From Hemileia vastatrix (Eukaryota > Basidiomycota > Pucciniomycetes > Pucciniales > Zaghouaniaceae), in the NCBI GenBank assembly GCA_030280995.1, contig JASXTE010000010.1:27520823-27584822 (forward strand): DNA of 64,000 nucleotides, written 5' to 3'. Positions 1-52,214 of the stretch are shown piece after piece. A model generated the notes under the pieces. That model saw only the letters and a list, made by a program, of their open reading frames with translations, did not search any database and was not told where the DNA came from. The translations under genes and the position numbers were made by a program. Numbering within the stretch: position 1 is the stretch's first letter; each line of letters opens with the position of its first letter.

Positions 1-1984
1 TTGATTGTTGAGCTTCACTAGTCTTGCCACTTGATATTGTTGCAGCACAATATTTTGATTTAAGAATGATAATTGACATAATTATATCAATGATAATATT
101 GCTGATTTGAAGAAGAGTTGACATTGATATATCACGGGTTTGAAGTGCAGTGGGACCAACTTCTAAGCCATCAGAAATCGGACTCTTCAGATTTGAAAGG
201 TGAGCTAGAAGCTGAAGACCACGTTCAATTGGACAATCTGAGTTAATGTTTTGATGTGATGGAAGCTGGCTGAATTCATGTGCGGTCAGATAAAGTGAAG
301 ATGATATAAGAGATACCCATGAAGAACGGCAGTGGTCACTTGGGATCATTAATCTCATGAGCATTCGGATAAGATTGGATTCAGGGTGATCCGTTTTCTT
401 TGTTGAGGAAAGAATTTCAGTATTTAAACCATCAGGATCACATAAATCTTCCATTTTTTTGAAATCAATATTATCGAGTACCCATAGCTGTGAGCTATCA
501 ATCTCTAAAAAAATATTTGCTACAAAAGGAAAAAAAAAATAAGTAAAAGAACAAAAGTCAAGACTAAAAATTATGGTAACTTACATAACTCAGTAAGTTT
601 TGAAAGCCAATCTTCTCCACAAGATTTTTCCCAATGAAAAGTAAACATTGGAATATTTGACATGGGTTCTTGGGAATAAGTAGAAGAGCGTAATTCGAGG
701 AGAGTAACAATTTCCAACCACGACCTTAGGACCTTTTCCGTGCTGATTCTACCTTTATAAAAATTATGAATTTTACAGAATTCCTCCTGCAAATCAGATT
801 CTTTTAGAACTGAGGGTGAATAAGTTAGAGGTTTTTTCGATATCTTGATTGGAGTTGATTTCATTGGTAGAGAAGCTTTCAAAGAGGTCAAAGTAGGTAA
901 TTTAGGAGGTGATGGGTATTGCTTCTTAGAAATGAAGGAATTCGGTGATGAGCTGTTTGAATCATCATCTTTATCAAACATATCAACATGTCTTGAAGAA
1001 GATTTTAAACTTTGCTTTTTTTGATGAACAAGCATAGCTTCATATTCTGATAGTTGATCATCGCTATTTTCATTGCTCTTTTCATCATCTTCATCAGGGA
1101 GAGGGCGTTTATGGATGGAACAATCTACAGCAGGTGAGTTTCTGGTACAAAATATCAAAAGAAAGATAAAAAGTACAATATGTAAGCAATAAAAGAGATA
1201 TATGATTGAATTTTAAAGATAAAAGAATAACAATAAAAAAAAAAGGAAACAAGAATATACTCATTATCAAAACCTTTGCTTTTTTTTTGAGATTTATTAT
1301 TTGATACATCAGAAAATTCATTAGCAGAAGCCGGTTTAATACGTCGAACAAAAGAGGAGCCTTGGGATAATCTCTTTTTCTTGGAGCGGATAACAGGTGT
1401 TTCAAGATTTTCCTTAGAAGTTGAAGCATGAGTTGAAGCTGATGGTTCATCTGTCTCATCATCATCCCTAATGACAATGACTTCATCAGGAGGAATCATA
1501 CCCTCCTCATAAGCTACAAATATATATGAAGAAAAAAAAATATTAACAATCTTATCTACTAATTTAAAAGGAGACAAAAAAGGTGATGAACATACATTTT
1601 TCAAGGCTTTTCACATATTGGAGTAATTCATTACAAGGGTTAGATAAATATGAAGGAGAAGGATTATTGTTAAGGATCTTGACAAGCTCTTCTGTTTTAT
1701 CTCTAGCCAATTCAAGTAAATTGCGATACTGAACTCTCGTTATTTCCTGCCTCTCATTGCTAAGTACAGGAGGGTTAGGTGCCATGCCATGTGGCAGACA
1801 TGGTGCAAGCTCAAAAGCTTCAAAGCGAGTATCAATCAGAGAGTGGGATGAAACACATTTGGGTGCTGGAAAATCAAATTTTTGAAAAAAAAAAGATATA
1901 GAACATAAGTGAAATATATAAATTAAGAGAGAGGAACATGATATACATACAAAGTGGAGGTGTAGGATTTTGTATACTAGACAT
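1..1984 (-). CDS. Family D protein, copy D1 (uncharacterised; partial, 3' end outside window)
   Basis: I do not recognise the product. Five exons can be joined with consistent phase: 1984-1951, 1865-1596, 1513-1261, 1141-585 and 519 down to the window edge, with donors GTATGT, GTATGT, GTATAT and GTAAGT and AG acceptors. The start is the ATG at 1984. The frame is open through to position 1, giving about 544 residues and continuing outside. The protein has a Ser/Pro/Lys-rich middle with an acidic patch (DDDETDE) and basic clusters (KKKR, KKSKK), then a more ordered C-terminal half. It is homologous to the decayed copy at 37211-39789: both have W-x(4)-C-x(3)-W-L before the same phase-1 intron, then a tryptophan about 12 residues later and an S-W-x(2)-L-I segment. 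Its 5' end faces the palindrome array at 3021-4956, as in the other copy. The function is unknown; a nuclear, possibly DNA-binding role is a guess. Confidence 0.8.
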
Positions 1985-3020
1985 ATTGATTAATGAATAT
2001 TAAAAAAAAGTATTCGATATCAAAAAATTATGATGTAATATGATGAATAATTATAAGAAACTCTATTCTAGAAAATTGAAGTTGATATTTTAATAGGATA
2101 AAAAATTGAATAAGATTAAAATTAAAGTGAGGATGAAAGAAACAGAAAACATAAAGAGGGGGATTTTATATTATTTGAGCTTTTTTTAACATGTATTATT
2201 CATAGTGGGGTAAACTGAGTAACATGCTAAATCACAATCTGTTTATATTGAAGCGAAATTTGATGTAGCTAACAGAAAATACTAGTAATTCTTTGGGGAC
2301 TTTTAGTGTGAAAAACAAATAATAACAAATTTATATCCCATATTCAAATTGCCACGGGTAAATACAAAATTTTTTAAATTAGAATTTACTCCTAAACAAT
2401 GGAGATACACTTAATTAGTATATTATATGAAAAAAAAGGATAATCCTTTATGAATATTTGTTAAATTTAATTTCAGATGACAATGCGAGATTCACATATA
2501 TACTGATATGCCTCATCAAACAAGAAATGAATTATAAATATAAAATTGGTAACATTAGAATTTAAGATAAGAATTTGTTTTTTAAGTGACAGGAGGAGTG
2601 TCAGGCTAGGGTGTGGGCACCGTGACCAAACCTTTGATAAACTTGGATACAACTAAGGGAAAAAAAAAAATTGAATAGTTTTATTTTGCAATATATCTTA
2701 GTCTGCACAAGATATTGCATTGTTGTCCCTAACTATACCAAAATTGTTACTTTTCAAAAGTTATAGGACTACTAAGTTGATAAAATATTATTATGAATCA
2801 CCCAATGAAATACCTTAAGCAACATTCAAAATTATTAAAATATTAATATTCAATTTGAGATTTGGATTAGCTAATTTTTCACAACTTACCACAGTTTTGA
2901 TTAATATAATAAAACTTGAAAAAAATTGTTGAGATAACCTAGAAATGGGTGCAAGAAAATGATGAAACATATGACTTGAAACTTAACTCATACACTATTG
3001 ATAAACTTCATGGATCCTGA
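1985..3020. other. AT-rich gap upstream of D1
   Basis: No convincing reading frame is seen. It should contain the promoter of D1, which is transcribed leftwards from about 1984, but no clear TATA or motif stands out in such AT-rich sequence. A short GC-richer patch at 2585-2635 has the look of an eroded LTR end (TGTCAGGCTAG), but no partner was found. Confidence 0.5.
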
Positions 3021-4956
3021 TTAATTTCTATCGAAATTAATTTTGAGACTAGCATATTGAATTTTAGCTATGACCAAGTACTGTAAGTGCCATGGTTTGT
3101 ATTCAATATATTGGTGTTGAAATTAATTTTGATAGGAATCAACAAGTATCAGATGGCACCATGCATGAAACACTGACAGAAACCATCAAATTTATGAGGC
3201 AATGAACCTCATAATTTCGATCGAAATTAATATAGACCCCTGCATATTGAATACAAGCCATTTCACATGGACTACACAGACATAGATAAAATTCAACATG
3301 CATGGCTTAATATTAATTTTGATCGAAATTAACCAAGGCATTAAAACATCAATTTTTATATGGTGTACTTGATCAAACCAGTTTATCTAACTGCTTAGCT
3401 TACCTATACTTATAGGAATTTTATGCATAGTCCATGTCCATATTAATTTCGATCGAAATTAATGTTGACTAATACATAATGAATACATGCTATGCCACTT
3501 ACACTTTCCAGGCATAGCTACCATTAAATATGCCAGTATCAAAAATTAATTTCGATCGAAATTAATGAGCATGATAATCATGAATTTCTGGAGTCAACTG
3601 CTTATTTTTATGCATGGTGCCTTGCCAACATTAATTTCGATCGAAATTACTTTTGATACTGGCATATTGCATGTATATATGCCTGGAAAGTGTAAGTGGC
3701 ATAGTGTGTATTCATTATGTATTGGTCAACATTAATTTCAATAGAATTTAATATTGACATTTTCATATTGAACCCAAACCAGCAAACGACCCAAAAAATT
3801 CTTCATAAAACTGCTCATTAATTTCGATCGAAATTAGTGAGCACCATATACATATTGAATGGTAGTTATATCTGGTGTGTGTAAGTTGTAAAGCTTGTGT
3901 TCAATGTTTATTGGTCAACATTAATTTTGATCAAAATTAATGAGCATTTTGATCATGAACTTTTTCAGTCAGTTAGTTGTTTCAATGCATAATGGCATTC
4001 CAACATTAATTTTGATCAAAATTAATGTTGAAATGATATAATGCTTTTTTGCATGACATGTAAAGGACGGCAAGTATTTTTAAGTATTGAAATTTACTAT
4101 ACATGTTGAGGGTAAATATAAAATTTACATATCCATATTAATTTCTATAAAAATTAATGTTGACCAATACATAATAAATAGTAAATATGCCTGGCTAGTG
4201 TAAGTGGCATAGCTTTTTTTCAATCTGCACTTGGCAACATTAATTTCGATCGAAATTAAGGTTCATGATTATCATCAATTTATTCAGTCAGTTGCTTACT
4301 GTTATGCATGGTAACATGTCAACATTAATTTTAATAAAAATTGAATTTGACATGCTACCAAGCATTTTTATGTAAGATGAAAAGTAGGGCACTCTATTGT
4401 TAAGTAAACACATTACAATGCATATTGAGCATGTAAATATCATTTACACATTAATATTAATTTCAATCAAAATTAATGTTGACCAATAAACATTGAACAC
4501 AAGCTTTAAAACTTACACACACCAGATATAACTACCATTCAATATGTATATGGTGCTCACTAATTTCGATCGAAATTAATGAGCAGTTTTATGAAGAATT
4601 TTTTGGGTCGTTTGCTGGTTTGGGTTCAATATGAAAATGTCAATATTAAATTCTATTGAAATTAATGTTGACCAATACGTAATGAATACACACTATGCCA
4701 CTTACACTTTCCAGGAATAGACACCATGCAATATGCCAGTATCAAAAGTAATTTCGATCGAAATTAATTGTTGGCAAGGCACCATGCATAAAAATAAGCA
4801 GTTGACTCCAGAAATTCATGATTATCATGCTCATTAATTTCGATCGAAATTAATTTTTGATACTGGCATATTTAATGGTAGCAATGCCTGGCAAGTATAA
4901 GTGGCATAGCGTGTATTCACTATGTATTGGTCAACATTAAATTCGATTGAAATTAA
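3021..4956. repeat. Nested palindrome array 1 (about 20 short palindromes forming one large palindrome)
   Basis: About twenty copies of a 20-bp self-complementary motif (consensus TTAATTTCGATCGAAATTAA) start at 3021, 3120, 3211, 3313, 3443, 3546, 3631, 3732, 3818, 3921, 4006, 4138, 4240, 4325, 4457, 4560, 4645, 4748, 4834 and 4937, at 65-130 bp spacing. Several are perfect; others carry TC/CA or TT/AA changes. The spacers are also mirrored: 3443-4150 matches the reverse complement of 4250-4956, so the motifs pair symmetrically around about 4198 (for example 3546 with 4834, and 3818 with 4560). The block is therefore a roughly 1.5-kb imperfect palindrome made of small palindromes, extended to the left by a few more copies. 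No ORF lies inside it. It sits between D1 and B1, about 1 kb upstream of the D1 start. Confidence 0.9.
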
Positions 4957-5172
4957 TATGGATACATAAATGTGACATAAAGAGGTATGGACCATCAATT
5001 TGTTGAAAATACATTTTTATATCTCATACATTATTTGTTTTTCTTAAATAAAATGTTACTCTCTCTCAATATCACTTTATAACATTTACCAAGCTGCTTT
5101 GAAAAAAAACAGAATACATAAAATTCAATATAAGATAGCTATATTACACAGAAGATCACCGTTATACCTAAG

Positions 5173-6838
5173 TTATGATGATGTTGATGCTCTATTAATT
5201 GATTCCCGAATCTTTACCAGATCAATATCAGCTCCAACCCCAAGTGACTCACGTTCATTCACAGATAATCCTTGCAAAAATGTTGCTGAATAGCAATTCT
5301 TGGGGAGGTATTTGGGAACATTGAATATACCATTTTGTGCAACTGTCCTTTCTGATGACCGTGAATATGTTTTTAATGTTGATTTTTTTTGAGCTGGTGT
5401 ATGGGCTAAGTCCTTTGTCATCTTATCCATTTTTTTAAACAAATCATTGAGTTCAGGATTTCGCCATCCAGGAATAGCTCGGATAGGTGCAGTTGGGGCT
5501 GGTGCTGGGCCTTCCTCGATATCAGAGATGCACCTAGTATCATGAAAAAGCACAACAAAACCTGGCACATCACTGCAGAGATCTCTTGCTAACTTGTAGC
5601 GTGCACTAGCAATCTGAATTCCAACTAAATCAGCTTCATAATAACAAAAAGCAAAGTAAAATTAAAAACTTACCTTGGTCCGATAACGTTTTACTTGTGC
5701 CCTTGCCCTCTTTTCAATCTTTTCTCTTGCTACCCTTTCCTCTTCTTGCCCAAACAACCTTATCATCTCCTTCCCCTTATTAACTACCCATTTCTCAATA
5801 ACACATTGAGTGAACTGAAGCTTTGACTGATCGATTGTATTCAAGGTGGTGAGCCATCTGGTACAGTGGTCGCATACTATGCTTCCCATGACTTGATTCC
5901 AAGTTGATTCTGAAAAATCACGGCAAGTCCAATCAAACATGAATCTCCGAAAACCTTTTTCTTGCAATTCACGCTCTAAGTTTCTTTTGACAGAAAGTGG
6001 GATCGGTGCTCCTCCTTTTAGTCCTCGAGGCTCAGGTGCTGGAAAAAATTCGGGTAGTCGAATTTTGGATCGCAAGAAGGCTATAGAATTGGTTATCAGA
6101 AATTGTCGATCAGCTGCAGAATTGGCACGGTTAGAAGATTGGACTTGGGTTAGGACAGTTTGAATGGTTTTTAGTTTGAATTGGCTCCAATCTTTCCAAT
6201 TTTCAATCTCCAAAGGTGTTGGGCTCGCAGGATATTTTGATATTTGTGTTGGTCCCCCAAGACAATACTTCAGAAAGTGGTAAATATTTCTATTTAGACT
6301 GTCCGAGCTCCTGGGAACATCATTCCTTCTAACTAAGCCTCTTACAGCCCTTAACCCCCGTTCTCCCTCATGAGACTCTGCTGAATTGAGTCTGTGGTAA
6401 TCACTGATACCCATAATGATTGAGGGATTCACTAACAATTCAAATAAGTTAATTAAATTGGTTATTTTTCAATAAAAGAATACACTACAAATTTTACTTA
6501 CCTGCTCCACTTGTGCTTGCTCCTTGGTTAGGCTGAGCAGATGATGATTGGTCTCTGAAAAATTCCCTCAATACTTCACTAGCCCAATCTCTTCCTAGCT
6601 GATCAGCACTTTCAGAAGCAGAAGGATGATTGGGATTAAAATTTCTCGGTTCTGAATGAGACTCTTGGCCTGGATTGGGATTAGGTGGTGGGTTAGGATT
6701 AGGTGGTACAGATTGAGATGCATCTGGAGGTGGATCAGCAGAGGGTGGTGGAGGAGTATTTCCAGTATTAGTATGTTGAGGCAGAAAACAATCAGAATCG
6801 GTTGGGTCAACAGACATCCCTTCAAAATTATCATCCAT
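5173..6838 (-). CDS. Family B protein, copy B1 (uncharacterised, intact)
   Basis: Three exons join in frame: 6838-6502, 6431-5674 and 5613-5173, with donors GTAAGT twice, giving about 511 residues. The N-terminal exon is a Pro/Asn/Ser-rich low-complexity tail. The second exon holds the conserved core: a short FLKY helix-like segment, then a block starting RFMFDW followed by W-N-Q, and a third block with E-K-W-V before a very basic Arg/Lys/Glu-rich stretch. The last exon has G-W-R-x(2)-E-L and a C-terminal block (LPKNCYS, then ADIDL). The same order is found in B2, B3 and B4. I do not know the family; no catalytic motif is visible. It lies 0.4 kb downstream of the transposase A1 on the same strand. 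By analogy with two-protein CACTA systems it could be a transposition accessory or DNA-binding factor, but that is inference. Confidence 0.8.
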
Positions 6839-7255: not shown

Positions 7256-10200
7256 TCACCAATCCTACAAATTTCCCGAATCCCAAATTAACACAAAGAT
7301 GTTAGTCAACAGAAAATAAATTTGATTAATTTTTTCACTCACTACTGTCTGCAGTCCAATGGCAGTGACAACCTCATCTTTGATTCCAAACATTCCTTTT
7401 TTGTGCTCGACAGTAGCTGCATGTCCAATTATTGCATCTTTCTTAATCACAATTTGAGTTGCTTTGGCTACTCTTACTAACCGACAATGCACTTGTGGGA
7501 AAAGCTCATAGGGATCCTTTGATGTTTCTTCTGGACGGAGCTCTTTGAAAGGACTTACTATTAAATATATTTGATCAATCTCTTCCTTTGATCTGAAAAG
7601 ATCATCAATTTGCCCAAACTGGCTATCTTTTCCATAGTAGAATTCAATTGTTGAATTAGCAATGTGTCGATGGTAACTAGTAAACCTCTTTCCATGTATC
7701 AATATGCTTGCTACATTTTCAACTACCCGATCCCCACTTTTCTCCGATGGTGTCAAAGCCCGTCTTGAAGTTTCTTTTCCCATTCGTGCCCTTACCCATT
7801 TAGTAAATAATGCCATACTTAGATGGATCCATTTGTTTTGTTTATCGAGATCAATATGGATTTTTTTAGTCTCACATTGATCATTATCTTCAGCTTCACC
7901 AAGATCTAATACCCTAGACTTCCGATACCAATGTTTGAGCATTGTTAGCGGTATCTCTCCTGTGGTAAATATTAATAAATTAGCACAGCTGAGTTTTTAA
8001 ATCATTTCTTACAAACATTACATACGTGGATGGTGATTGTTTGGAATTTCAGATAATATATGATTCACCCGCTCTCCAGACCAAGTAGCTGTACCTGATG
8101 GTGGACCAAGACGCTTTATCATTTCAGGATAATGTTGAGTGATATGCAGATTTGGCTTTGCATTAATATTCTTCCAACCCTCTTCAAGGCACTCACGATA
8201 CTCTAACAGAAATTGATCTAGATCTTTAAGCTCATTAGTCTGTATATTTTTTAATGTCAAAAAATTGGTGATCGAGCATAATGTTACAAGTGACTTGAGA
8301 AGATAATATTCTCTTGGTTTATCAGCTGAGGAAGCTGAAGATTCAGATTCTTTAAATTTTTCAAACCAAAGGGGTATAAGTGACAAAGGGAAGTAGAGAG
8401 TATACAGCATGTGCCATTCTGCTGCCTTGAGGGATCCTGCCTTTTTAGATCCTACTGATTTTGGAACTCGTGTTAGCCAGGAAGGTCTTCTTACTTGATC
8501 AATCATCTTCCATACAACCTGTAGCTCTGCTGCTGTGATTCGTGGATTACTACTACCTTCATTTTCTTTCTCCTTACCTTTCCTTTTATTTTCTTCATCT
8601 CTAGCTGTCTCATTTGATGAGTGAGATCCTTCACTCTGTGATATGCTAATGCTTCTTTGCCTTAAGTTATACAATGAATTCCTACTGTCACTGCTTTGAG
8701 ACTGTACTGAGGCCACATCGCTATATGGAGGAATAAATTTGGAGCTGGATGACCTACTCTGGCTTCTTGATCGATTTGTTCCCAATCCTTCATTATCTAG
8801 TCCATGATGACTTGATGACTGTCTTGAACTCGTACGTCTTTGCCGCTTGTGCTGTCTCGTGTGTCCTGTATCATCATCATCATTATTCGTGGTGCTTAAG
8901 CTACTTCTACGTTTTTTCGAATGTTTGTGCAGTGAAGTATCAGAAAAGAAATCATCATCTTCTTCTCTTACATGCCAATTTTTATCCTTTTCCAGCTTTC
9001 TTTCTAGATCTTTTGCTGCATTTTGGATTTGAAAATAGCTTAGACTGTGATCTTTTAGGTTGCCAAGCATATGTGAATGCATAACATCAATTGAGCAATA
9101 TTCAGTTGGACGCCAATATTCAAGGTTATTCAGCTCACTCCATCGTACCCCATGATTTTGAACAATTGATACACGCTCCCAATGTGACTTAGAATTTTTC
9201 CACTTTGTTGCCCAGCACATATGATCCTCATGATTCCGTAATGAAAAATTTCCCACATTCTTTTCACTAATTTCATCTTTAGAGATATTACAGAAAGAGC
9301 AGAACATTTTTGCAGAGTGACTCGAAAAGCCAGCCAATTTTCGTATTGCAGGAATGTCACCTATCAAAGAGAACAATGCAACTCTTAATTTCCGGCCTCG
9401 TGGATAAAGATGTGTCTTTTCAATCAATATACCATCCCATAGAGTTTGTAGATCATTAACCAGTGGTTTTAGAAGGTGATTAAGCTGTTCACTTGTGGGT
9501 TCTGTTGGTCCGGGTATAATAGAATACAAAAAAAGATTTTCCATTTTGTATCTATCTTCTTGAGGTAGGTTCATACACACCATCATAATATTGCCTACAG
9601 ACTTCTGATGACCTCCAATCCTATTGCCACCAGGCCTAAACCAGTCGACATATAAAGTAAACATTAAGTTGCCTGAAGTTATTGTATATTCATCATCATT
9701 GCTATCCAGAGCTGGAGTGGTTATGGGAAAGTTTTTCCAAATTGAACCATCACAAACATCCTTCATCAAATCACACTCTACACGTTCTGCCACAGGGGTT
9801 TTCTTCTCAATCAGAAGCTCAAATTTGAACAGTTTGATCTTTTCCTTAAGCCAGTCGATAAAAGAATGGTGATGAAATGTTTTAAGAGATAAGTATTTTA
9901 CATGTTCTTGATGTTCCTCCATCAAATACAGCCTTTCATCACATTTAACTGCAATTTGTCCTGCTCCAAACATTTTTAAATAGCGCTTTGATGATGAAAG
10001 AAACGGTTGATTGCAACATAGTATAGATGGTTGAGATTCAGAGTTATACTCATAAAGAGCAAAGCATTTAGGACAGCATGTTTTAGTGAAAAATGATTGA
10101 TTGAGCTTTAATCGACTAAAAACTGTATCTATCGAGCGTGGGACCAGGCGGACAATGCTATCAGAATCCAGTATTCCACTATCACCTAGAAGTTTGAGCT

Positions 10201-10643
10201 TCTTAATTTCTTCATCCAAAAATTGAGTACAACCTTCTTTGCTCAAATGATGAATCAGAGAAAGCTTTGCTGCCTGCCACATAATTATTTGGCTATACCG
10301 TTCCCCGAGATTTGAGTTTCTAGAGACTGTTGAAGATACTTCTGCCCCCAATAGCAACTGCCCCTATGTAATAAATCATTGAAACATCATAAAGACTTTA
10401 ATTCTCACATTGAACTATAGATATACAGCTTACTGTTTCTGTGGAGCGGGAACTTCCAATGTTAAGTGGATTGTTGGAAGAAATAACCATCTGGGCCTTC
10501 CTATTTCTTTCCTCTTGATGTTTTGCATAAGAATTAGAGCTTTTGAAAGCCATACCAACTTCAAAGGACCCAGAAGAAGTTTGATACTTTCTATTGACAC
10601 ATCCAAGATCTTGACATTGACATACATGAAAAAATGGAGGCAT
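7256..10643 (-). CDS. Tnp2-type (Plavaka/CACTA-like) DNA transposase, copy A1, intact
   Basis: Exons 10643-10434, 10363-8026 and 7959-7343 join in frame, and a tiny last exon (7264-7256) is inferred from a good acceptor; total about 1057 residues. Exon 1 encodes a Cys-rich finger-like motif (CQC then GC, and a downstream KHQ) typical of basidiomycete Tnp2/Plavaka proteins. Exon 2 carries the Transposase_21 core: DGSIWKNF, the first conserved acid in YVDWFRP-GNR-GGH (about residue 311), GDIPAIRKLAGFSSHS with a CSFC motif (about 406), and the DVMH-LGN block (about 496). A Ser/Arg-rich basic insert of about 150 residues follows, then R-P-S-W-L-T-R-V-P and KAAEW, also found in A2. Family knowledge: cut-and-paste DDE transposase acting in the nucleus. 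No stop or frameshift is seen, so it may be functional. It lies between B1 and the divergent gene B2. Confidence 0.9.
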
Positions 10644-11718
10644 TGTAATTGTGATAATTGTAGGAATAAGTTAGCTATTCGAAGTTACCGATTGAAGGTA
10701 TTCCTTTTTTTGAAAGGCACTAGCTAATATAAGCTACATTTTTTTATCAAAAGAATATGATGGAATATGTGTTGAAATTATTTAAGTTTAAATGTTTAAT
10801 TTTTAATCGGATAAATTATATATTAATTTAAAGTTATGCAGTCTACTTTATTTGTATTCTGTATACTCTCTGCATTTGTACAACAATGCATGCATGTTTA
10901 TCAGAATATTTTCTATCATAGAAAAAATTCTGTTGTACGCACAAGCATCTTAATTATTTTTCTATCAAATGCCTTCTGAGTTATATCTAACTACCCTATA
11001 ATTATTTGATTTTGATAAAAATTCTTAGTTATGGACTATAAGAAAAGTAATCCATATTTTTAACATAATTATTTAAAAAATTACCCCAAAAATCAAAGTT
11101 AAACCCAAAAATAAGTTTAATATTTTGTAAAAAACAATCACAAACATATTTCTTTCAACTTGAAAATTGGTCTGTACTAGGTAGAATTTTCTATAAAGAA
11201 AAAATCAAAAATACTCAAATAATAGATGCTACAAAAGTGTAAACCTTAAAGAATTACATAAAAGCTGAAACCTTGTATAACTTTTCATACATAAATGCGA
11301 TGAAGTGACACTCTAGTCTATTTATTCAGGTTGAAAAAAATTACTCAAAAGAATATGTATTACTATCATATTGGACCAAAAATAATTTTTTGGTAATCAA
11401 AAAATGAACATAGCCTCACATTTAACAAATTATTTTTGTGGAAGAATTTTTTGAAAAGAAAAAAAAATCCGTTTCTTAAATGAGTCTGCTTTTATCACAT
11501 AATCATTCTCTTTATTTTATACCGTTCCTTTTGAGTTCAAGTTGCATATAAAAATATAATTTATGCATATTATAATTCCATAAAGTCGAAATATTTCTTA
11601 TTCTTAATTTTTGTGATATTTCTCCTTAAATCAACTTTGATCATAAAGTTTTGGAGCTCAACAATTTATCCTTCCTCTTTGTTTAATTTAATTGAACACT
11701 TTCTTAATCTTATTATTT
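10644..11718. promoter_or_regulatory. Divergent promoter region between A1 and B2
   Basis: About 1.07 kb of AT-rich noncoding DNA separates the divergent starts of the transposase A1 (leftwards) and B2 (rightwards), so both promoters should lie here. I see no palindrome array of the kind found upstream of the D genes and no confident TATA element. Confidence 0.45.
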
Positions 11719-27677: not shown

Positions 27678-27699
27678 AAGTAAACTATCTACTAGTTTT

Positions 27700-30154: not shown

Positions 30155-30958
30155 TTTTAAATGGCTTATAAAAATATAATACTTAGGATGGTGGTGATAG
30201 AGGAACAAGGGGGAAATGAAATTTGATGTATTCCATGCCAAAATATGTATCATAACTGATTATTCAATTTGAATAATATACTAAATTGAATTAAAAAAAT
30301 TTTCAAGTTTCATAGGTTTAATATTAAAGGTGTAGGAGCATGAAATTGCATGAACTGCAAGGTAGAAGATACAGATACAAGTAAAAAATTCTGTACCATA
30401 ATCAATCAGGGATATTGAACATACATGTATAAGAAATGGTTGACAAGATACTAAAATTTTTCCATTTAAAAATTAGAGTACTTTTTGTTGTACTGCATGA
30501 TTCTCTGAGTATTTTGGTCAATGAAAAAAGGAATTATAATTTAAAATTTAAAGACTGTAATTTATATTGTTAGGAAAATGAAAAAGGAAAATTTTGTTTA
30601 AAAATCATATTTGTATATTCAGCTTAACCATAGATAATGAACCATATAATTTATTTCTAAAATCACGTTTATGGAGTGAATAGAATTTAAATGAAAGAAG
30701 TTATGAATTTAAAATGATATTTAAGCAATGACATGTCGAAACTTAAAAATTATACCATTCAAAGGTAATCTTTCAGGTGCAATTATGAAAAATGATATTC
30801 AGTGTTTTTTTTTAATTTTTTCATCATTCAAGGAATTCTTGTGAATGGATAAAATTAAAAATTGCAAAATTCATTAATACAGTGAAATAATTTTTCTTGT
30901 TGCTATTGAATGTACACATATTTTAAAATAAATAAGGTTATAAATAATAGAATAAATA
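30155..30958. other. AT-rich gap between A2 and B3
   Basis: About 0.8 kb with no supported gene. It should hold the A2 promoter and the B3 3' end. No clear motif is seen. Confidence 0.5.
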
Positions 30959-32057
30959 TTATAATAAATGTAAAAGAGAGGGTATTTTAAAGGATTGATT
31001 CCTGCATAGCAATAAAAACTGTGATGTAGTTAATGAATCAGTATTATAGCAACACAGTGGAAGATTACTTGGACAAGATGATGTTTCCGACATAATGGAT
31101 GATTCTTTTCTAAGTGAAACAACATGTTTATACAAAGATTTACATTTTCTGGTTCCTCTTAACTTATTCAAAGTAATCTGATCAATCTGGGAATAAAAAT
31201 TGGAAAGTTCATCTGATCGTCATTTCAATTTTCTCTTCCAAATATTTCCTTCCTCATCTTGCTCAGTGTCAGAGTGATAATTTGGGTTATAAAATAAGAA
31301 GAGATATTCTTGATCCAGTACAGATATCGCAGTATGGAGCCGAGATTTTTGTAACTGAAGTAGAGTTTCAATGAAAGTTCCTCTAGAAAAAAAAAACTTG
31401 ACTCACTTTTCTTCTAGTTTCCTTATTTTTTTTCCAGGACAGAAAATTGGAGGTGATCTGGACTGTCCCTGTTGGGTGCGGAGCCATTGTTCTATTATGA
31501 GTGGCAAAAAATCCTCTTGGTACTCATTATGATCAAAGACATAATATCGAAATGCCTGGTTTTTGAAGGCATAGCAATAGTGCTTTGTCAGATGAGAGAT
31601 AACCAATTGATTCCATTCTGTGTCATCATTTATAGAAAAGCATAGTCGAGGTATTCCAACTGCTTTAGCATCATTATGACAAATATGATGAAAAACAAGT
31701 GGAATTGTTTTTTGCTGCCCAGAGGGAAATAACTGCAGTTCCTCCATGGTTTCAGTTGCTTTGGACATTGTTGGAAGGGAAGTAGAAGGTAAAGGATTGA
31801 CAAGAGAAGAGATTTCAGAAACAGTTGGAGAAGATGGATAAGTATCTTCTTTCTTGCATTTCCCAAGGATAAGCTTTATAAAATCAATTATAGAAGCTGT
31901 TGAAGTAGCCTTGGAGTTGGGAACACCTATTCCAGCAAGAATTTTATTGAATTCCCTAGAGCTTTTGAAACCTGTTGCTTGTATTAAAGTAGAATCTTAA
32001 ATTTTACATTAGTGAAAAAATTATAGCCTATCAAATAGGAAACTTACATGAAGACAT
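30959..32057 (-). pseudogene. Family B protein, copy B3 (one in-frame stop)
   Basis: Three exons join in frame: 32057-32048, 31995-31407 and 31382-30959. The core matches B2: G-F-x(4)-F-N-K-I-L near the N-terminus, RLCFSIND-TEWNQLV-SHLTKH, and IIEQWLRTQ. A TGA at 31220-31222 replaces the tryptophan of the conserved W-R-S-D-E-L block (GWRNPEL in B1), consistent with a single TGG to TGA transition; otherwise the frame is open. It lies between A2 and C2 on the same strand. The function is unknown. Confidence 0.75.
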
Positions 32058-32472: not shown

Positions 32473-34662
32473 TCATGTAATGTTTTCTTCTATTGTAGAG
32501 GCAACAATATATCTGTAAACATGGACCTCTTTAGTTTGACCTATCCTGAAAACTCTGTCAATGGCTTGTTTCTCCATCAAAGGGTTCCAGTAAGGTTCCT
32601 AAAAATAAGAGTTAGATTAATCATAATTTGAGAAATTGAAATATTACAATTAAGAAAACATGTGATGCCATTGTCAGATTAAGACCTTCTCCTCCAGCCT
32701 TCAAAGACACCAAAAGAACACCGGAATCAATGGTAGAGAATGACTTGAGGACGATTTCCCGTGCACTCATGTCAAGTGAACCATCAAATTTGAGATTTCG
32801 GATATTGTACTCAGAAAGAGCAAATGAAATTCTATTATTTTGAAGGTTAGTTTCAATATTTTTTCATTGAAAGAAAAACTTACAATTTGAGTGTGTCAGT
32901 CCACTCAGAGAAAATGACACATTTCATTTCTTTTTTCAATAGAGTATAATTTGAGAAGGAAGTTGACCAGGTGGACAAATTTTGGACTCTCCTTCCAGTC
33001 CATTTCTTCCACCACAGATATTTCTGAATTGTGTGGGAACTGAGGGTGATTGCAGAAACGTTGCAATGCTGATAGAGCCACTAATCCAGAAGGATCTTTA
33101 GCATGTAAGATGTTTTCATCCATGTTGAGCTGCTTGAATAAGATATTATGCCACATGATGTACATTTCTGAAAGTTGACCCGTCAAATTGATAATGAAGT
33201 TTTGATATTTCACTCTATTTATGAAGTTAACATCCCCCTGATCCAGACATATAGAATTCTTTGTCCTTTGAATCATTATGTCCCCTAAGACAATTTGAAT
33301 AATCTTTTTGACATCGGTAAATTGGCCTTTCTTTGCTGGAGTTCCAACATATTTATTCCATCCTTCAGAGGTTGATAGTGGATCAAGAGGTAAAAATTGA
33401 AAGATGGTAAATAAATCTTGGACTTTGTTCTGGATGGGAGTTCCAGTTAGACTAAGACAGTGAGATGTCTTTGGTGCAGTAACAGATATGGAGGACTTTG
33501 AAGATGGATCACGTATCTGACTATAGGAAAATGAATCAAATTTATTAAATCAATAGTGATTAAAAACTTACTGTGCTTCATCCAGAATCACACGAAACCA
33601 TCTAACATGGAACAAACCTTCCTTTTCTAAACTTCCTAACTCATTTATCATAATATGATATGATGTTAAGTTAATGTCAGCCTCATAAAATCTTATGAAA
33701 TTTTCACTTCTGCCCTTTCTATGATGAATAATCACTTTAATCATCAAATCAGGATCAGTATGCCATAAAATTTTGTGTTCCCATTGTTTCAATAAAGTTG
33801 AGGGTACCACTATGAGTGTTGCCTTCACCTTCTTTGTGCTTGATGAAGGGCTTTGAAGACATGAAAATTCAGCAGCTTCATTTAAAGTACTAACAATCAG
33901 AGCAATTGTTGACACTGTCTTCCCAAGGCCCATGTCATCTGTTAATAGAATTGATTTCAGTAGTGTGTTGGTAACTCTTCCACTCAATTCATTTTTTCAA
34001 GTTGAATCTCCACAGCACCTCCATAAATATGTTTCATTACGCCTTTCCTGAAGTAGCATAAATGCAAGAGCCTGGCTTTGATGGGGTAAAAGGTGTGTTT
34101 TCAAATGTTGGGGTTGAGCCATAGAAGCTGGGTGACTGAATTTGATGGAGAGGAGTTCCTGTATGTGAATGAGTGAACCGTCAAGCTGAGTTGAAAACGG
34201 ATATTGAACTTCACAGCCCAAGTGAAGAGAGGATGTATAGTTAGTTGGTTCAGAAATATCCTCTTTGATAGGAAGAAGGAAGGTGTAGAGGGAATAAATA
34301 TGTGCTGGTAAACAGAAAAGTAATATATTGATTGTTGGAGGAAGGGTGAGATCTAGGTGAGGAACAAGAAGAGTCTCAATGAGTAGAAGAGGTGTTTCTT
34401 GACCAGGCGTCCAACCACCAACTGGAGCTATAGTTGTTGAGGAGGATGGTTTTCCAAGAAGAGTGTAGAGCACCTTTGCATGTGTAGAGATAAGATTTCC
34501 CACACAAAACTTTGGCTTCTGTGAAAATATTTTGATAATATTTTCAGTTTTAGATAAATAAATAGAAACATGCTGTTCCTGAACTGAAGCTGTATTGTGA
34601 CTAGTTGTGGTGTAGGACCTCAAGATGCCAATACAAATGGGTTTGATAGTAGAAACATCCAT
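32473..34662 (-). pseudogene. SNF2-family helicase-like protein, copy C2 (decayed)
   Basis: It starts MDVSTIKPICIG at 34662. Motifs in order: TDDMGLGKT, a DEAH box completed across an intron at exactly the same place and phase as in C1 (donor GTAAGT near 33570), LTGTPIQN, CVIFSEWTD, SLKAGGEGLNL and AIDRVFRIGQ. It has a canonical C-terminal half and again no RING or HIRAN. There are two lesions: a TGA at 33997-33999 before motif I (probably TGG to TGA) and a one-base frameshift in an A-run near 32940. At least five exons are indicated. Confidence 0.85.
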
Positions 34663-36072
34663 GATGGTAAAGAAATAAAAGATGGGACAATTTTTTGAGG
34701 AAGCAGAGCGCTTTATATAGGACTTGATATTTTGGGAACAAATGGAATTTTTTTTTTGGAAGTGTTTTAATTTAATGCAGAAGTATAAAGGGCTAAATTA
34801 ATAATGTAAATCCTTCAATTATATATAAATACTACATGTACTACATAATAAATATTCATTTTTAAATAGTAAAAACTTTCAAGGAACTTTATTTTTAATT
34901 TTTTGGAGGTGCATTTAATAAATTAAATTCATATTTTGTAAAAAAAGGTCAACAAATATAGTTTGAGAGATCAATAATTAAATAATACTGATTTGCCTAC
35001 ATTTACTTTAGCTTACAGCTGCTTAAATAAATCTACATTTACTTTAGCTTACAGCTGCTTAAATAAATTAATAATGATTATATTTTTTCATATTTCACTT
35101 GAATAATCATCTTGCAACATTCTAAGAACCTGTTTCCTAGAAATGGTTTTAGATTTGAAGGCTAGATGTGTTCAGTGTATAGAATAATATCACAATATAT
35201 TTTAGTACATTTGATTAAATTTTACCTTATGAAATACCTTATTAAAATTCAAAAAAAGCTTTTAATTTCCAAATGAAATTTTAAGGAATTTATATGTACC
35301 TTGATATTGGGAATCTTGAAAATTGTTATCTTCAACACCAAAAAATTATACAAAAAATTTGACATAAACAATTTAATTTTATAAAAGCCAAAAAAAAAAT
35401 TTATTATTTTATATTTTAAGAACAGTATATTTTTAATTTTACCTTCATTACCTCTGACTTACCCCTTTGAATCACTTATTTTAAACCTTTGAAGCCCCCC
35501 TTTAGCCCCTCTGTCACCCCCAGTGGGGCCCCCCTGGGGCCAACTGGGGGTGGAAAAGGGGCTTAAAAAGTGCCAGGAAAGGCTGCGCAAAGGTGTTTCT
35601 CTCTAGTAAGATTCTGTTAAACCCCTCATAAAAACCTTTCTCAATTCCATAAACTTAAAATCCATAACCTTATATAAATATTATGTTTAATCTCTGCTTA
35701 CTTTTTTTCTCTCTCTCCATGTTGCCAGTCACGAATTTATATATATGTTATTTCCCATCAAATATGTAGTAAAATTTAGTTGAAAAAAATAAATTTTTTG
35801 TTGATTTAGTCCTATGAAACTCCCCAATTACTCACTTTTTACATTGAAAAAAGAATTACCTATATACTTATTCCAAAGTCATCACCTGTCCCAGTTCCCT
35901 TATTCATGGTTTGATGGACCATAATGTTTAAATTATGGTGCATTGAACCTTTTTTTAAACTCACATTCTCTGATCCCATGAAAAAAAATCCCAAAATTAT
36001 TTTTATTTTCATGGGACCACAGTATTTTAACTCACGTATTTTTGCTATATTAATCGAAAATTCAATTTCTTA
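34663..36072. other. AT-rich region between C2 and palindrome array 2
   Basis: No gene is seen. It holds the C2 promoter, a 35-bp tandem duplication near 34998-35068 (ACATTTACTTTAGCTTACAG units) and a GC-rich inverted repeat at 35504-35563. Confidence 0.55.
35504..35563. repeat. GC-rich inverted repeat
   Basis: Arms of about 21 bp (AGCCCCT...CACCCCCAGT and its near reverse complement ACTGGGGGTG...AGGGGCT) flank an 18-bp GC-rich loop. The block is a sharp GC island in otherwise very AT-rich DNA and lies about 0.5 kb left of palindrome array 2. Confidence 0.8.
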
Positions 36073-36780
36073 TGGCTCATTTTTGAGCCAGGATTGGTGC
36101 CTGCTACTTAGTCACGTGCAGAAAAGTATTGCTGCAACACTTTGATGCATGTGAACAGCAGCTAGCCACCAAAGGCTGGGTCAAATGAACCATATCTGTT
36201 TTATGATATGGTCCATTTGACCTGGCCACCTAAACCATTACTTGTCATGTGCAGCAAAGTATCGCAGCAATACTTTGCCTCATGTGATTTTTTTTTCCTC
36301 GCCTTGGCTTGGTCAGATAGACCATAACTTAATGTTATGGTCTATCTGACCATAGCCAGGGAGAAGGCGCTGTCACTTGCAGCGAACTGTTGCTTCAACT
36401 CTTTGCTGCACGTGACCAGCCTTCTCCTATGCCCCCTTGGGCAGATGGACCATAGTATCAAAGTACTATGGTCTATCTGACCCAGGGTGTGGCCGGAGAG
36501 GGCTGGTCACGTGCAGCGACAGTTCGCTGCACGTGAAAGCGCCTTCTCCTTGGCTATGGTCTATCTGACCAAGCCAAGGCAAGGAAAAAAAAAGGTCACG
36601 TGCAGCAAAGTATTGCTGCGATACTTTGCTGCACGTTACCTAGAGGTGAGACGTGAAAAAAAAGGGAAATAGCTAGATGGACCAGATATTCTGGTTTATC
36701 TAGCTATAGTGTGAGAAAAAGAAATGACCATATGAAAAAAAGTATCAGTGATACCTTTTTTCATATGGCTAAAAAATGAA
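36073..36780. repeat. Nested palindrome array 2 (palindrome of palindromes)
   Basis: At least ten hairpin-forming palindromes occur in 0.7 kb. Two motif types alternate: GGTCAGATAGACCATA (for example 36311-36351, with 18-bp perfect arms around TTAAT, and 36441-36482) and TCACGTGCAGCGA/CAAAGTAT (for example 36507-36536, with 13-bp perfect arms, and 36598-36637). The whole block 36241-36640 is itself an inverted repeat centred near 36441-36482: 36301-36326 and 36555-36580 are a perfect 26-bp inverted pair, and the flanking hairpins mirror each other. It carries no ORF and ends about 430 bp upstream of the D2 start. The sequence differs from array 1, but the architecture and the position next to D are the same. 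Confidence 0.9.
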
Positions 36781-37210: not shown

Positions 37211-39789
37211 ATGCCTTCCCATACTTCAACCCCTAGCCAAGCCCCTCCAAGCTCTCCCTCTGTGGCTGAAGAATCAGCATTGCCTGTATCTGCTACAGCA
37301 CAAGTTTCTACTTAAGATAAAGATAATGCTGGAACAGGCAAGTCTAATTTTTTGTGTAATTTTTACCTCTTGAGTTCTTTTTTTTTACTTTGGTCTCTTC
37401 TTGTATCAATTAGAGTCTGGAAAGTTCTCTAAGTCCATGGATATATCTAGCCCTCTCTCCTCTATAAAAGATTCTCAAGAATCAGGTGGAGGCTCTGGTG
37501 AGTTTTTTGTATCATTATTAGTTTTATTTTGAGCTAACAAGCTCTACTTCTGATGGTGCTTCAGATCACGCTCACGAAATGGAAGACTTTGAAGAGCACA
37601 AGGACAGAATTTTGAAGGATGAAGTCATTCAAATCTCAAAGGATGATTTTCTCACATCTGTATCTGAGTTTCAAGCATCAGTGGAGAAACTTGCTGGCAA
37701 AAAGATTCTTTCAGGCAAAATCAAGCAAAAGGTTCAAGAGCTTCTATTTGCATGTGAAAAATCCAAAAAAAGTATGTATTCTAGTATTAATTATTGTTCA
37801 AATAACTAATTTATTCAATTTTAGCTGTTGCTAGTGGAAAACAGCTTCCACCAAATGATCAAATTTTCATCATTGATCTCACGAACGAACCTGAAAGAAG
37901 GTCTTCAAAAAGAAAACAGACCATTAAAGTTTCCATCCATCCTGTTCTATCTGACTCAGAGGATGACTCCCAGCCTCACTCAAAGCTACGTTCACTATAC
38001 AAAAAGGATGCACCCAAGAGGCAAAAGTTATCAGCTAATCTAGATTCTTCACTACCACAAGCCTCAACCTCTGAGATACCTCCTCCCCCAGAGGAAACTT
38101 CATCAGCTCCCTGTATCCCCAATCCTTCTGTCTCTATTCCTGAACCTGCTAAAAATATTGAAGCTTCATCACTCCCTTCAAAGAAACCTGCTGGTTCTAA
38201 AGCATCTGTTACCAAATCTATCATCCAATTAACCCCTTCTAAACCTCCCACTTCTAAACCTCCCCCTGCTAAATCTCCCACTGCTACATCTCCCCCTGCT
38301 TCATCTCCCCCTGTTCAATCTCCTGCTCTGTCCCCCTCAACTCAAACTCCTGTTAATGCTCCAGCTGAAAAATCTATCCCTGATTAATCCTCAAGACCCT
38401 TATCTGCTTCAACTTCATTGCAACTGGCTGGCCCTCCAGAATCTTCTTCAACTTCAAAAGAACAAAGTTCTATCCCTGCTTCAGTTCATACACCTGCTTC
38501 CTCTACATCTTTCCCTCCCCAACCCACTTCAGCTCCCATTGCCTCATCTTCAACTGCCGTTCCTTTCACTGCCCCAGCTTCTACATCCAATCCAGATAAT
38601 AAGGCATCATCATCTACTGCTAAATCAAATTACCGCTTTGTCTTGGCCCAGCATAGAGAATCTGTGGAAAAAATTTGTTCCACATTTTCAGGTAGAATGG
38701 ATCGAGATGCCTGGAGGAAAATGGCATTAAATTCTTACAGTATATTGGAGTATCATCACTCTATCAAGGTTGATTCCTCTATTGAAACAAATAATTCAAA
38801 AAACTGTGCATGGCATCAAGAAAGCTGCTCTATAGGGAAATGGCTTCAGCAGGTTTTGACTTTAGGTATGTTATTTCATATTTTCATCTGAATCATAATA
38901 GCAGTGGTTGACATTTTTTACAGCACCTTCTTACCTCCTTCCCTCAGAATCTGAAGTATGGTATCAACATGACATCTTCCATACAGGCTTTATCAACAGT
39001 AAATTCAAGAATTCAACCTACTTATTTACTGCTCTTCTCCAGATAAATGAGCCATCCAAGGGTCAGAAGAATTCTTGGGCTCATCTTATAATGGAAGCAA
39101 TCAGTTTATCCGGACCCCGATTGAATTCTTCAAGAGAAACTTTTCAGACTGGCAGCACTGAAGATAGTGTCCTAGATGCTATCTCATACTTGGAGAGCTT
39201 GAAGATACAGAAAGATGTCAACAATGAAGAGAAATCAGATGCACTGTCAACTAGTAAAAAGGTTTCTATTGGACATCTCACTCTTCTTCATGACCAAATC
39301 CTTGTTATGCTTCAATGTTTGACTATGTTGAAGGGATACTCCAAAAAACCTGACTTTTTGTTGGAAGAAAAAACTGGGGATACTTTGGTTAAATCAAAAA
39401 CAAACACAGAACTTCAGCCAGAAAACCAGGATAAAAACTATTCTTATATAGCTTTTTTCTTAGCTGGTGGGGTAAGAGGTTTTTTTTTGTGCAAGGATGA
39501 TATCAGGAAGGCAAGATATGTTTTTTGTGCTGAGCTAATTGAGGTCACCAATTGGCTCAAGAAGAGTCACAAAAACAGGGATAGAGTCAAGTGGCCCAGG
39601 ACACATAAATACATTGTTGATATTATTTTTACCTGTCTTGGTTCTGACAATTTTTTCAATAAGTTTAGTATGAGTATTGAAGACATTTCAATGGCTATTG
39701 TTTTAGATTTTTTAGAGAAATGGTCTGTAGATACTAAAAACCAGGAACTTCCATGGATTGGAAAGGGGGGAAAAAGATCAGCCTCCTAG
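37211..39789 (+). pseudogene. Family D protein, copy D2 (two in-frame stops)
   Basis: The gene begins MPSHTSTPSQAPPSSPS. After several small exons the sequence NDQIFIIDLTNEPE aligns with PDEVIVIRDDDETDE of D1 at the same phase-1 intron. A long Ser/Pro-rich stretch follows (37930-38620), then a conserved part with C-x(4)-S-C-x(3)-K-W-L, a phase-1 intron (donor GTATGT near 38866, acceptor near 38923) and a 290-residue C-terminal exon ending at 39789. TAA codons at 37313-37315 and 38385-38387 interrupt it; both would be CAA after reversing one C-to-T change. It gives the C-terminal end that is missing from D1. No known domain is recognised. Confidence 0.8.
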
Positions 39790-40246
39790 TATAAGCTTGT
39801 AAATACATTGCTTTATTTTTTTAAATAAATATGATCTGATTATCTTTTTCATGTTTTCTTGTGTGAATCTAAAATTTTTTCCATCTTAATATATTTTATA
39901 AAAAGATCAATTGATGGCTATGAATTACTAATTTCCATTTCCATGGAAGAGTGAAATATATTTTACAAATTAATAATATTGAGTAAAAGTTCATATTTTT
40001 GACAAGAAAGAATCAATTACAATTTTTTTTACCTAATGGCTATCTTATTATGGATTTTTTAAAATTCTTGCTATAAATTTATTTCTTCTTGTCAGATATA
40101 ATGAATAATGCATATTATAATTATTTTGTTCTAAGAAGGTTCTATGATATTTCAAAACTTGCCTTATTTCCTAATAACAACCACATTCAACATCTACCTT
40201 CAAGAGTATCAAATCTTTTTTTTACTAAGCCAAGTTATCCTCAAAA

Positions 40247-42149
40247 ATGGACATCAGTACAGATGGTAATTTTTTTTCATGTTAGTGATCTCAACTCTTG
40301 TACTCACAGGAAAAAAAGTTCCAATGGTTGATTCTCCAAGAGATAGTAGAGACAATTCCCCCCAAGCCAACTCATCACATGCATCACCAAATAGACAAGA
40401 AGAGGAGTGTACGGCACCCCCACCTGCTTCACCCTTGCGTGAGAAATCACAAGGACCCAATCCTGAACCTGGAGAGAGTGAAAGAAGTAACCCTTCTGCA
40501 GGTAAATAGCTCTACCTTATAACAACATGACATTACATGTTTTATACTCACAATTTCATCAATATTTATTTTTTTCAAATCCATTTCGTGGTGGTTGTAG
40601 CAGGTAAGTAAATGGGAAATCCAAAATTTTCATTTGCTTATTTCAAATGATTTTTATTTAACCAGAAAAAGAAAAAAGGAACATCGAGGATTTTCTTCAA
40701 GGTTCATCTGGTGATGATGATGGTAAGTACAAATTCATATATCTATTGTTTCATTTTATCTTTATTAATTGAACTTACAGTGGAGTCAGCTTTGGATCCA
40801 GAGTCTTATATTCAATGGCATCAGCACAAAGAATCACAGGCAAAGAAGAGAAAGTCTGAAAATTCCTCCAGGAGACAAGTCACTTCTTTAGCCAAAAAGA
40901 ATCAAATTCCATCTGCATCCTCTCCCTTAGGACAATCTGTCATCATGTTTGCAAGATTTCTTTTAGGCTTTGACCCCTCAAAGCAAAAATTTTTGCTGTG
41001 CCCTGAACCAGGGCTAGTCAACAAAAGGAGAAGCCTGCACCAGAAAAGGGAAAAAATGACTTAAGAGATTCAAAATAAGCCCTGTCCTAGCCTGGAGTTT
41101 GCTCAAAAAAAATTATTATCAAATCCAAACTTGATCAGCTTGTTTCTACCTTCAAAAATCCTATCTTTACACCCACTTCTGACTTCACCCTTCCACCAGG
41201 CCAGAGCATTAAAGTTGTTTGGAAACGTTAAGCTGAAGCTAAATTGGCTCAAACTGGGATCTCTTGCTTCTTGTATGACTGGGGAAAAAGTGATGATGAT
41301 GATTGGAACTCAACCATCCTTACTCAAATTGTCTCTGGATGGATGGCTTGTTATCAGGGCAAAGGTTTCCAAAATTTTCCAATTTCTCAAGACATTTTCA
41401 GTAATGAAGCACTTTTAAGCATTCTTCAGCGATGGATATCTGGACAGGCCAAAATTTTCAGGGATAAAGCCAAAAAAAACAATCTGATTCTGATCTTGCC
41501 CAAGTGCAGAAGATAAAAAGTGTGAAACACCAGACTTCTAAAATGAGAAGAGAGGTAAGTGAACTACTTTATCACAGTAGTTTATAAATAAATTGATTCT
41601 TGACTTATATAGTTGCATGACCGTCGAACTGAGATTGCTGCTTCATTCTTGGTTCCTGATAAGGCTGGGCTTTTCAAAGATGCTGAGCTTCATCCAGACA
41701 CAGAGGTAAGTGCTAGTAGAACTCACACTAATAGAATAATTCCTTGGAAAATTCCAGCACTTGTCTGATGTTTAGACTCAATCAATGAAGGCTGGGTCAA
41801 GAAATTAATGATGAAAGCAAAATCATCAACAGCCAAAGCTTCTGTGAGGGCCAAGGTCACTCGACCTCTAAAACAAGTTTTACCACCAACAACTGAGTGA
41901 AATCAACCTGAAGAAGGGCCTAGCAATTGTCCCATTAAATATGAAATTGATGATAGACCTCTTCACAATGGTATTTCTAAAGCTTATGTTGATGATGAAT
42001 ATTATAGAAAACTCAGTGTAATAGAAAAATTGTGTGTAGATAATAAAAGTGATATTGATTTGAAGGAGTTAGCTGAAGTTATTGAGTATTACTGTTCTGG
42101 TAGTGAGATTATGTTAACTCCTAAGCAAATAGAATATCTGAAAAGATGA
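40247..42149 (+). pseudogene. Family B protein, copy B4 (decayed)
   Basis: A small first exon (MDISTDG) and a Pro/Ser-rich second exon (40310-40502) precede a core with FARFLLGFDP, ISCFLYDWGKSDDDDWNS, LQRWISGQA and, after an intron, LHDRRTEIAASFL. The last part has NGISKAYV and SDIDLKELAEVIEYY, matching the C-terminal block of B1. TAA at 41062-41064 and 41229-41231 and TGA at 41898-41900 break the frame, plus one shift in an A-run near 41475. All three stops can be explained by C-to-T changes. It follows D2 on the same strand and is the last gene before the right inverted repeat. Confidence 0.72.
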
Positions 42150-52140: not shown

Positions 52141-52214
52141 GTTTTTCCTTGAATAAAGTAAAAATAATAAATGGTTAAATATTTCTTTCTCTCAGTTCAG
52201 GTTAATTAAAACTA

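What the first reader, a model, noticed from the sequence alone, without database searches (positions are those of the whole stretch)
1..42149. A recurring transposon gene set: transposase, two B proteins, SNF2 helicase and D protein, each with a nested palindrome
Four unrelated gene families (Tnp2 transposase A; uncharacterised B in two copies; SNF2-like C; uncharacterised D) occur together twice, in different order: D1-B1-A1-B2-C1 (1-15252) and A2-B3-C2-D2-B4 (18246-42149). In both sets a large palindrome made of small palindromes lies directly upstream of D. Set 2 is enclosed by one pair of terminal inverted repeats. This suggests a family of multi-gene DNA transposons in which B, C and D are part of the machinery or stable cargo. 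I know of no described CACTA/Plavaka family with this content, but I cannot search.
Basis: partly seen in the sequence, partly recalled or inferred. Interest (0 to 1): 0.92.

Follow-up and report, generated by a model that had tools for sequence, protein, structure and literature searches.

The report
Multi-gene CACTA-like fungal transposons
Two long-diverged jumping-gene elements in what looks like a rust-fungus genome carry the same set of genes besides the cutting enzyme, including a chromatin-remodelling motor and two unknown protein families next to arrays of mirror-image DNA repeats, which suggests, but does not show, that they bring their own tools to work inside silenced chromatin.

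Summary
Set 2 is one transposon: 18011-44524 (26,514 bp), with ~72-bp terminal inverted repeats starting CACA, a CACC target duplication, and an empty site where an open gypsy gag frame runs through the junction. It holds a Tnp2 transposase (A2), two B proteins, a SNF2 ATPase (C2) and D2. A later gypsy (21337-29763) split A2; A2, B3, B4 and D2 are broken. Set 1 (from before base 1 to perhaps 16144, an unproven end) holds the same four families; the parts of A1, B1, B2, C1 and D1 that I read are open. A1 and A2 are 29-48% identical by piece, so the gene set has long stayed together. B and D match no Pfam family. Upstream of D in both sets lies a palindrome array: 20 copies of one 22-bp palindrome in set 1, alternating longer ones in set 2, unrelated in sequence. 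I read these as CACTA/EnSpm-type (CMCT) transposons with accessory genes, perhaps for anti-silencing (inferred). Whether B, C and D are linked to Tnp2 elsewhere could not be tested: the collections here are prokaryotic or viral and the genome tool did not complete. Class: new variant of a known kind.

The parts
1..1984 (-). D1 gene, 5 exons (1984-1951, 1865-1596, 1513-1261, 1141-585, 519-1), 544 aa open, runs off the left edge
   Evidence: splice model; no Pfam family
3020..4957 (.). Array 1: 20 copies of a 22-bp palindrome at spacings near 85-88, 101-103 and 130-132 bp, inside a large inverted repeat; about 1.0-3.0 kb upstream of the D1 start
5176..6838 (-). B1 gene, 3 exons (6838-6502, 6431-5674, 5613 to stop), 511 aa, open
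   Evidence: splice model
7268..10670 (-). A1, Tnp2 transposase: N-terminal Cys/His-rich exon (10401-10670), main open frame 8021-10363 with VDWF, GDIPA, CSFC and GERVN; 7268-7996 taken as its C-terminus by position only
11719..12837 (+). B2 gene, 2 exons (11719-12327, 12397-12837), 350 aa, open
   Evidence: splice model
12976..15318 (-). C1, SNF2 ATPase, four open pieces with DDMGLGKT, DEAQ, TGTP and R-x-GQ motifs (by eye); two of the four pieces were scanned with Pfam, both PF00176, no RING in them
16100..16144 (+). Candidate right end of set 1 (..CTGTG, reverse complement CACAG..); not confirmed
   Evidence: the tests gave no significant support
16269..18010 (+). 5' part of gypsy 1, the target of set 2; the gag part 17683-18010 is clear, the stretch up to 16269 rests on a weak match; continues at 44525
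18007..18010 (+). Left target site duplication CACC
18011..18082 (+). Left terminal inverted repeat of set 2, begins CACA
18940..30259 (-).
21337..29763 (-). Nested Ty3/gypsy element, LTRs 95% identical, target duplication GTATT
30950..31996 (-). B3 gene with an in-frame stop
32476..34797 (-). C2, SNF2 ATPase pieces with DDMGLGKT, DEAQ, TGTP and RIGQ motifs (by eye)
36110..36768 (.). Array 2: alternating palindromes P1 (5 copies) and P2 (3 full copies), then two further palindromes; ends about 440 bp before the D2 start, between C2(-) and D2(+)
37211..39789 (+). D2 gene, broken by in-frame stops in its N-terminal half
40700..42149 (+). B4 gene, broken by several in-frame stops
44452..44524 (-). 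Right terminal inverted repeat of set 2, begins CACA on the minus strand
44525..44528 (+). Right target site duplication CACC

Best explanation
Two related, long-diverged families of large CACTA/EnSpm-type (CMCT clade) cut-and-paste transposons. Each encodes a Tnp2 DDE transposase plus a conserved accessory set: two B proteins, a SNF2-type ATPase and a D protein, with a palindrome array beside D. Shown: one element with TIRs, target duplication and empty site (set 2), the same content in a second, better preserved copy (set 1), catalytic motifs in A1 and SNF2 motifs in C1 and C2. Inferred: the transposase moves the element; a B or D protein (or the Cys/His-rich N-terminus of the transposase) binds the palindromes as a dimer; SNF2 remodels chromatin there so that the silenced element can be transcribed and mobilised. 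I put the element reading at about 0.85 for set 2, 0.72 for the shared family, and the anti-silencing role at about 0.3.
For: The TIR pair is the best inverted match in a 3.9 by 6.3 kb search; 0 of 100 shuffles reach it. Both ends start CACA and are flanked by CACC; joining the flanks with one CACC gives an open frame through the junction, 45% identical over 402 aa to the gag of another gypsy, and the left flank alone beats 300 of 300 shuffles. A is 29-48% identical by piece, C 24-32% over its longer pieces and 54% over 37 aa, B 22-24%, D 23%: the set stayed together while diverging. D1 and D2 share two intron positions and phases (my reading). In array 1 the palindrome is better kept than its spacers in 158 of 167 unit pairs (mean 0.873 against 0.736; 167 of 190 pairs kept; pairs not independent, flanks overlap neighbours).
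Against: Only two copies. The left end of set 1 is unseen and its right end unproven. CpG observed/expected is even in set 1 (0.38-0.44) but uneven in set 2 (0.38 in A2, 0.10 in D2 and B4), which could mean pieces of different age; it is a poor clock anyway, since the youngest gypsy (LTRs 99.1% alike) has 0.17. By tblastn the left flank alone reaches only E 1.8, and the right flank carries most of the joined match. No DNA-binding domain was found in B or D by Pfam and the models are poor (pLDDT 51 and 35). The palindromes show no more compensatory change than shuffles (116 of 500 and 317 of 500 reach the count). Two of three D1-D2 parts are weak on their own.
Confidence: 0.7

Rival explanations
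1. Set 2 is one transposon, but B, C and D belong to other transposons nested in it and in set 1; the repeated content reflects how common all these genes are in a repeat-rich genome.
For: Gene order differs between the sets; CpG depletion is uneven across set 2; a gypsy is nested in set 2 for certain.
Against: Apart from the palindrome arrays no convincing inner TIR pair shows at 16.5-43.5 kb (25 of 31 pairs seen); four unrelated families, with B twice, recur in both sets.
Confidence: 0.17
2. The palindrome arrays are foldback or satellite-like insertions with no role in the element; their place beside D is chance.
For: Array 1 lies in a large inverted repeat (arms 95-97% alike) and the arrays of the two sets share no unit; intergenic room is scarce, so two arrays landing upstream of D is not very improbable (my estimate, not computed); no covariation beyond shuffles.
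Against: Regular spacing, the palindrome kept better than its spacers, the same place in two long-diverged elements.
Confidence: 0.3
3. B, C and D are captured host genes carried as passenger cargo.
For: Transposons capture genes; [quoted passage not shown]
Against: All four families are kept in two copies whose transposases are only 29-48% identical by piece; what I read of the set 1 copies is open.
Confidence: 0.2

Closest known systems
EnSpm/CACTA families of Pucciniales (PMC12730594, passages seen)
   Same: Transposase with weak similarity to EnSpm and Plavaka, termini 5'-CAC..GTG-3', accessory genes inside rust transposons; related EnSpm families reported from Austropuccinia psidii
   Different: Theirs have 3-bp target duplications and three families carry TET/JBP; here the symmetric parse gives 4 bp, no TET/JBP appeared among the 27 fragments or gene models scanned with Pfam, and the accessory set is SNF2, B (two) and D with palindrome arrays
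Plavaka A and B (PMC12730594, passages seen)
   Same: CMCT-clade transposase in fungi
   Different: Termini TGT..ACA or CATCA..TGATG there, CACA..TGTG here
Arabidopsis VANDAL with VANC anti-silencing proteins (PMC5735166, passages seen)
   Same: Several genes in one transposon; dense arrays of short motifs in its noncoding DNA; different families use different motifs
   Different: MULE transposase (recalled), plant host, motifs in one orientation in tandem repeats; binding shown there, not here; similarity of layout only
AcademH/KolobokH helicase-carrying transposons (seen through passages of PMC10799480; the AcademH paper itself was not held)
   Same: DNA transposon carrying a helicase-type protein in fungi
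   Different: Transposase here is Tnp2 (PF02992); the ATPase here is SNF2 (PF00176)
Maize En/Spm with TnpA (recalled; the one search, held nothing)
   Same: CACTA element with a second protein that binds repeated short sites and affects methylation
   Different: There the sites are subterminal; here the arrays are internal

Membership tests
CMCT clade (EnSpm, Mirage, Chapaev, Transib, Plavaka and others; definition from PMC12730594 passages) | DDE transposase with C(2)C and H(3-4)H between the second D and E | tested here: met
   A1: PF02992; VDWF, GDIPA, CSFC, GERVN in order; aligned with 12 relatives. The H(3-4)H motif was not checked
CMCT clade | Termini 5'-CA..TG-3' and 2-5 bp target duplication | tested here: met
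   Set 2: CACA..TGTG, CACC; set 1 not testable, left end outside the window
Fungal EnSpm | Termini 5'-CAC..GTG-3' | tested here: met
   Set 2
Fungal EnSpm | 3-bp target duplication | tested here: inconclusive
   4 bp (CACC) if the ends are symmetric; a shifted parse gives 3 bp (CAC); both give the same empty site (sequence)
Fungal EnSpm / CACTA | Subterminal repeated motifs (recalled as typical) | tested here: inconclusive
   No 8-mer of more than two letters occurs three or more times within 449-525 bp of the two set 2 ends and the candidate set 1 end; GTTGG occurs four times in about 45 bp near the candidate set 1 end (seen in the printed sequence, no control)
Plavaka | Termini TGT..ACA or CATCA..TGATG | tested here: not met
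   Set 2
TET-positive transposons | TET/JBP gene inside | tested here: not met
   No TET/JBP match among the 27 fragments or gene models scanned with Pfam; not every open piece was scanned and the left part of set 1 is outside the window
VANDAL/VANC-like anti-silencing system | Element protein binds the motif array and removes silencing | not testable with these tools
   Needs binding and methylation data

The most novel reading that the evidence does not exclude
A fungal counterpart of a sequence-specific anti-silencing system built into a CACTA-type transposon: D or B recognises the element's own palindrome array and recruits the element's own SNF2 motor to open silenced, CpG-methylated chromatin. 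The protein and its array would co-evolve, which would explain why the arrays of the two sets share position but no sequence.
Probability: 0.22. Interest if true: 0.85.

Novelty: new variant of a known kind. Interest (0 to 1): 0.62.

Why it matters
If the set is stable across rusts, it would show that some fungal DNA transposons carry a chromatin-remodelling toolkit besides, or instead of, the TET/JBP dioxygenases already described, and it would give functions to test for two uncharacterised protein families. It could also help explain multi-copy SNF2 genes in rust genomes (recalled, not counted here).

Tried and rejected
Tried and led nowhere: the repeat finder and a first local alignment could not show the TIRs because both stopped at 43500; a wider scan found them. 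A lax-gap TIR test preferred long AT-rich matches elsewhere (best 49 against null maximum 75.5; the TIRs alone 33.5) and is no evidence either way; the strict test is. B against the protein collection: none of 276 candidates and none of 7997 scored at E 0.01. Tnp2 in viral contigs: no pattern match, then 28 pattern matches, none a relative; in prokaryote contigs 20 pattern matches, none a relative. Fold models of B and D too poor; the PDB fold search for B gave nothing at E 0.001 or below; PDB sequence search for B had nothing convincing (best E 0.31). Covariation of palindromes not above shuffles. Rfam and tRNA scans empty. A 5' LTR of gypsy 1 was not found, and homology on either side of the candidate right end of set 1 was not significant. 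CpG depletion as a clock: dropped as an argument for age, since the youngest gypsy is more depleted than set 1.

Considered and rejected: Starship-like element (TIRs and a Tnp2 transposase instead; no tyrosine recombinase among the 27 fragments and models scanned); Plavaka (termini differ); set 2 as a chance cluster (TIRs, duplication and empty site).
Full report
What is there. The window is AT-rich (33.4% GC) and CpG-poor (observed/expected 0.31) and holds several Ty3/gypsy elements. This fits a rust fungus such as Austropuccinia psidii, whose genome is 33.8% GC with CpG-depleted repeats (PMC8063080, passages), but the species is a guess.

Set 2 is one inserted element. A scan for inverted pairs outside the five genes found 18022-18041 and 44495-44514 matching at 19 of 20 bases. 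With gaps the repeats run 18011-18082 and 44524-44452, both starting CACA, flanked by CACC on both sides. In a strict alignment this is the best inverted pair in the 3.9 by 6.3 kb space; 0 of 100 shuffles reach it, and the direct-orientation control scores 16 against 22. The flanks belong to one gypsy: joined with a single CACC, an open frame runs through the junction, and the joined stretch is 45% identical over 402 aa to the gag of the minus-strand gypsy at 52.5-61.3 kb (a stop follows further on, as this gypsy is decayed). Most of that match lies right of the junction; the left flank alone gets E 1.8 by tblastn but beats all 300 shuffles in a local alignment. The target duplication is 4 bp if the ends are symmetric, 3 bp (CAC) if shifted.

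Inside set 2, a gypsy with 95% identical LTRs and GTATT duplications (21337-29763) split the transposase gene; without it the element is about 18.1 kb. A2 is also frame-broken and has N where A1 and all 12 of 12 aligned relatives have the second catalytic D. B3, B4 and D2 hold in-frame stops. C2 keeps its SNF2 motifs in separate open pieces (motifs by eye).

Set 1 has the same families in a different order, and the parts of B1, B2, D1, A1 and C1 that I read are open; D1 runs off the window. Its right end may be at 16144, where the sequence ends in CTGTG beside gypsy 1, but tests around it were not significant, and its left end is unseen. CpG observed/expected is 0.38-0.44 in its five genes, 0.10-0.38 in set 2 genes and 0.02-0.05 in gypsy 1. 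That would fit one insertion younger than gypsy 1, but the youngest gypsy, with LTRs 99.1% alike, has 0.17, so I do not lean on it.

Homology between the sets. A: 43% over 178 aa, 38% over 149, 29% over 172, 48% over 33; C: 32% over 130 aa, 24% over 208, 32% over 65, 54% over 37. B: all four copies are related by shuffle tests, although only one of 12 B4 pieces carries a clear signal; identities are 22-24%. D: one of three parts is clear (0 of 300), the others 5 and 23 of 300; two introns lie at the same place and phase in D1 and D2 (my reading), which persuades me. Neither B nor D has a convincing Pfam match (best E 0.0026 for one D1 fragment to Tim54, far below its cut-off, and 0.22 for the whole D1 model). 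B1 and B2 share an SDxE..WR..LPxxCYS pattern that I recall from large families of unknown proteins in mushrooms; no call shows that.

The palindrome arrays. Array 1 holds 20 copies of ATTAATTTCGATCGAAATTAAT within 6 mismatches, at spacings of 85-88 and 101-103, sometimes 130-132 bp; 3 weak hits (5-6 mismatches) lie elsewhere in 64 kb. Palindrome columns agree in 14-20 of 20 copies, the 45 columns on either side in 6-17; in 158 of 167 unit pairs with comparable spacers (of 190) the palindrome is the better kept part. These pairs are not independent and their flanks overlap neighbouring units. 21 of the 26 CpGs of the array lie in the palindromes, which make up 440 of 1951 bp. Array 2 alternates two longer palindromes, the first seven 61-68 bp apart centre to centre, and ends with two more (coordinates). 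Both arrays fold far beyond shuffles and hold far more palindromes than shuffles. I found no compensatory change above shuffles, so maintenance of symmetry by selection is not shown.

How it probably works. The transposase is of the Tnp2 kind with its D, D and E motifs and C(2)C, so cut and paste with a short duplication is expected from the family. The SNF2 ATPase is a DNA translocase of the remodelling kind; its 12 PDB matches include Rad5, DDM1 and INO80. A palindrome suits a dimeric DNA-binding protein; D or B is the likeliest binder, which is inference. The nearest functional model is the VANC system, where tandem motifs in noncoding DNA of the transposon attract an element-encoded protein that causes loss of methylation, and different families use different motifs (PMC5735166, passages). 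Rust transposons with TET/JBP enzymes are proposed to do something alike by another route (PMC12730594, abstract and passages).

What is known. The listings of my searches of the open-access library held no description of this gene set (two lists cut); Repbase and subscription journals were not searched. Kojima 2025 (PMC12730594) reports EnSpm families in rusts with CAC..GTG ends, some with TET/JBP. So the kind is known and the content looks new: a new variant.

What is missing. Linkage across genomes, the left end of set 1, and any functional evidence. The genome tool did not complete (18 tries) and by its description holds prokaryotes.

Noticed in passing
21337-29763: Ty3/gypsy nested in A2, LTRs 95% identical, duplication GTATT.
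   Followed up: yes
52509-61267: Young minus-strand gypsy, LTRs 99.1% identical, flanked by TGAGG, inserted in what looks like a third plus-strand gypsy (50822-52501, continuing at about 61274).
   Followed up: partly
22240-22701: Plus-strand ORF with a cysteine cluster, antisense inside the nested gypsy; no Pfam match.
   Followed up: no
23001-24000: Extreme GC skew (0.749) at 23% GC inside the nested gypsy.
   Followed up: no
16270-18010 and 44525-49380: Gypsy 1 is almost free of CpG (observed/expected 0.05 and 0.02).
   Followed up: partly
18600-42150: CpG depletion varies strongly within set 2 (A2 0.38, D2 and B4 0.10).
   Followed up: no
62244-62300: Short tandem repeat with an 11 or 22 bp unit (TCCGCTTGGAC-like).
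   Followed up: no
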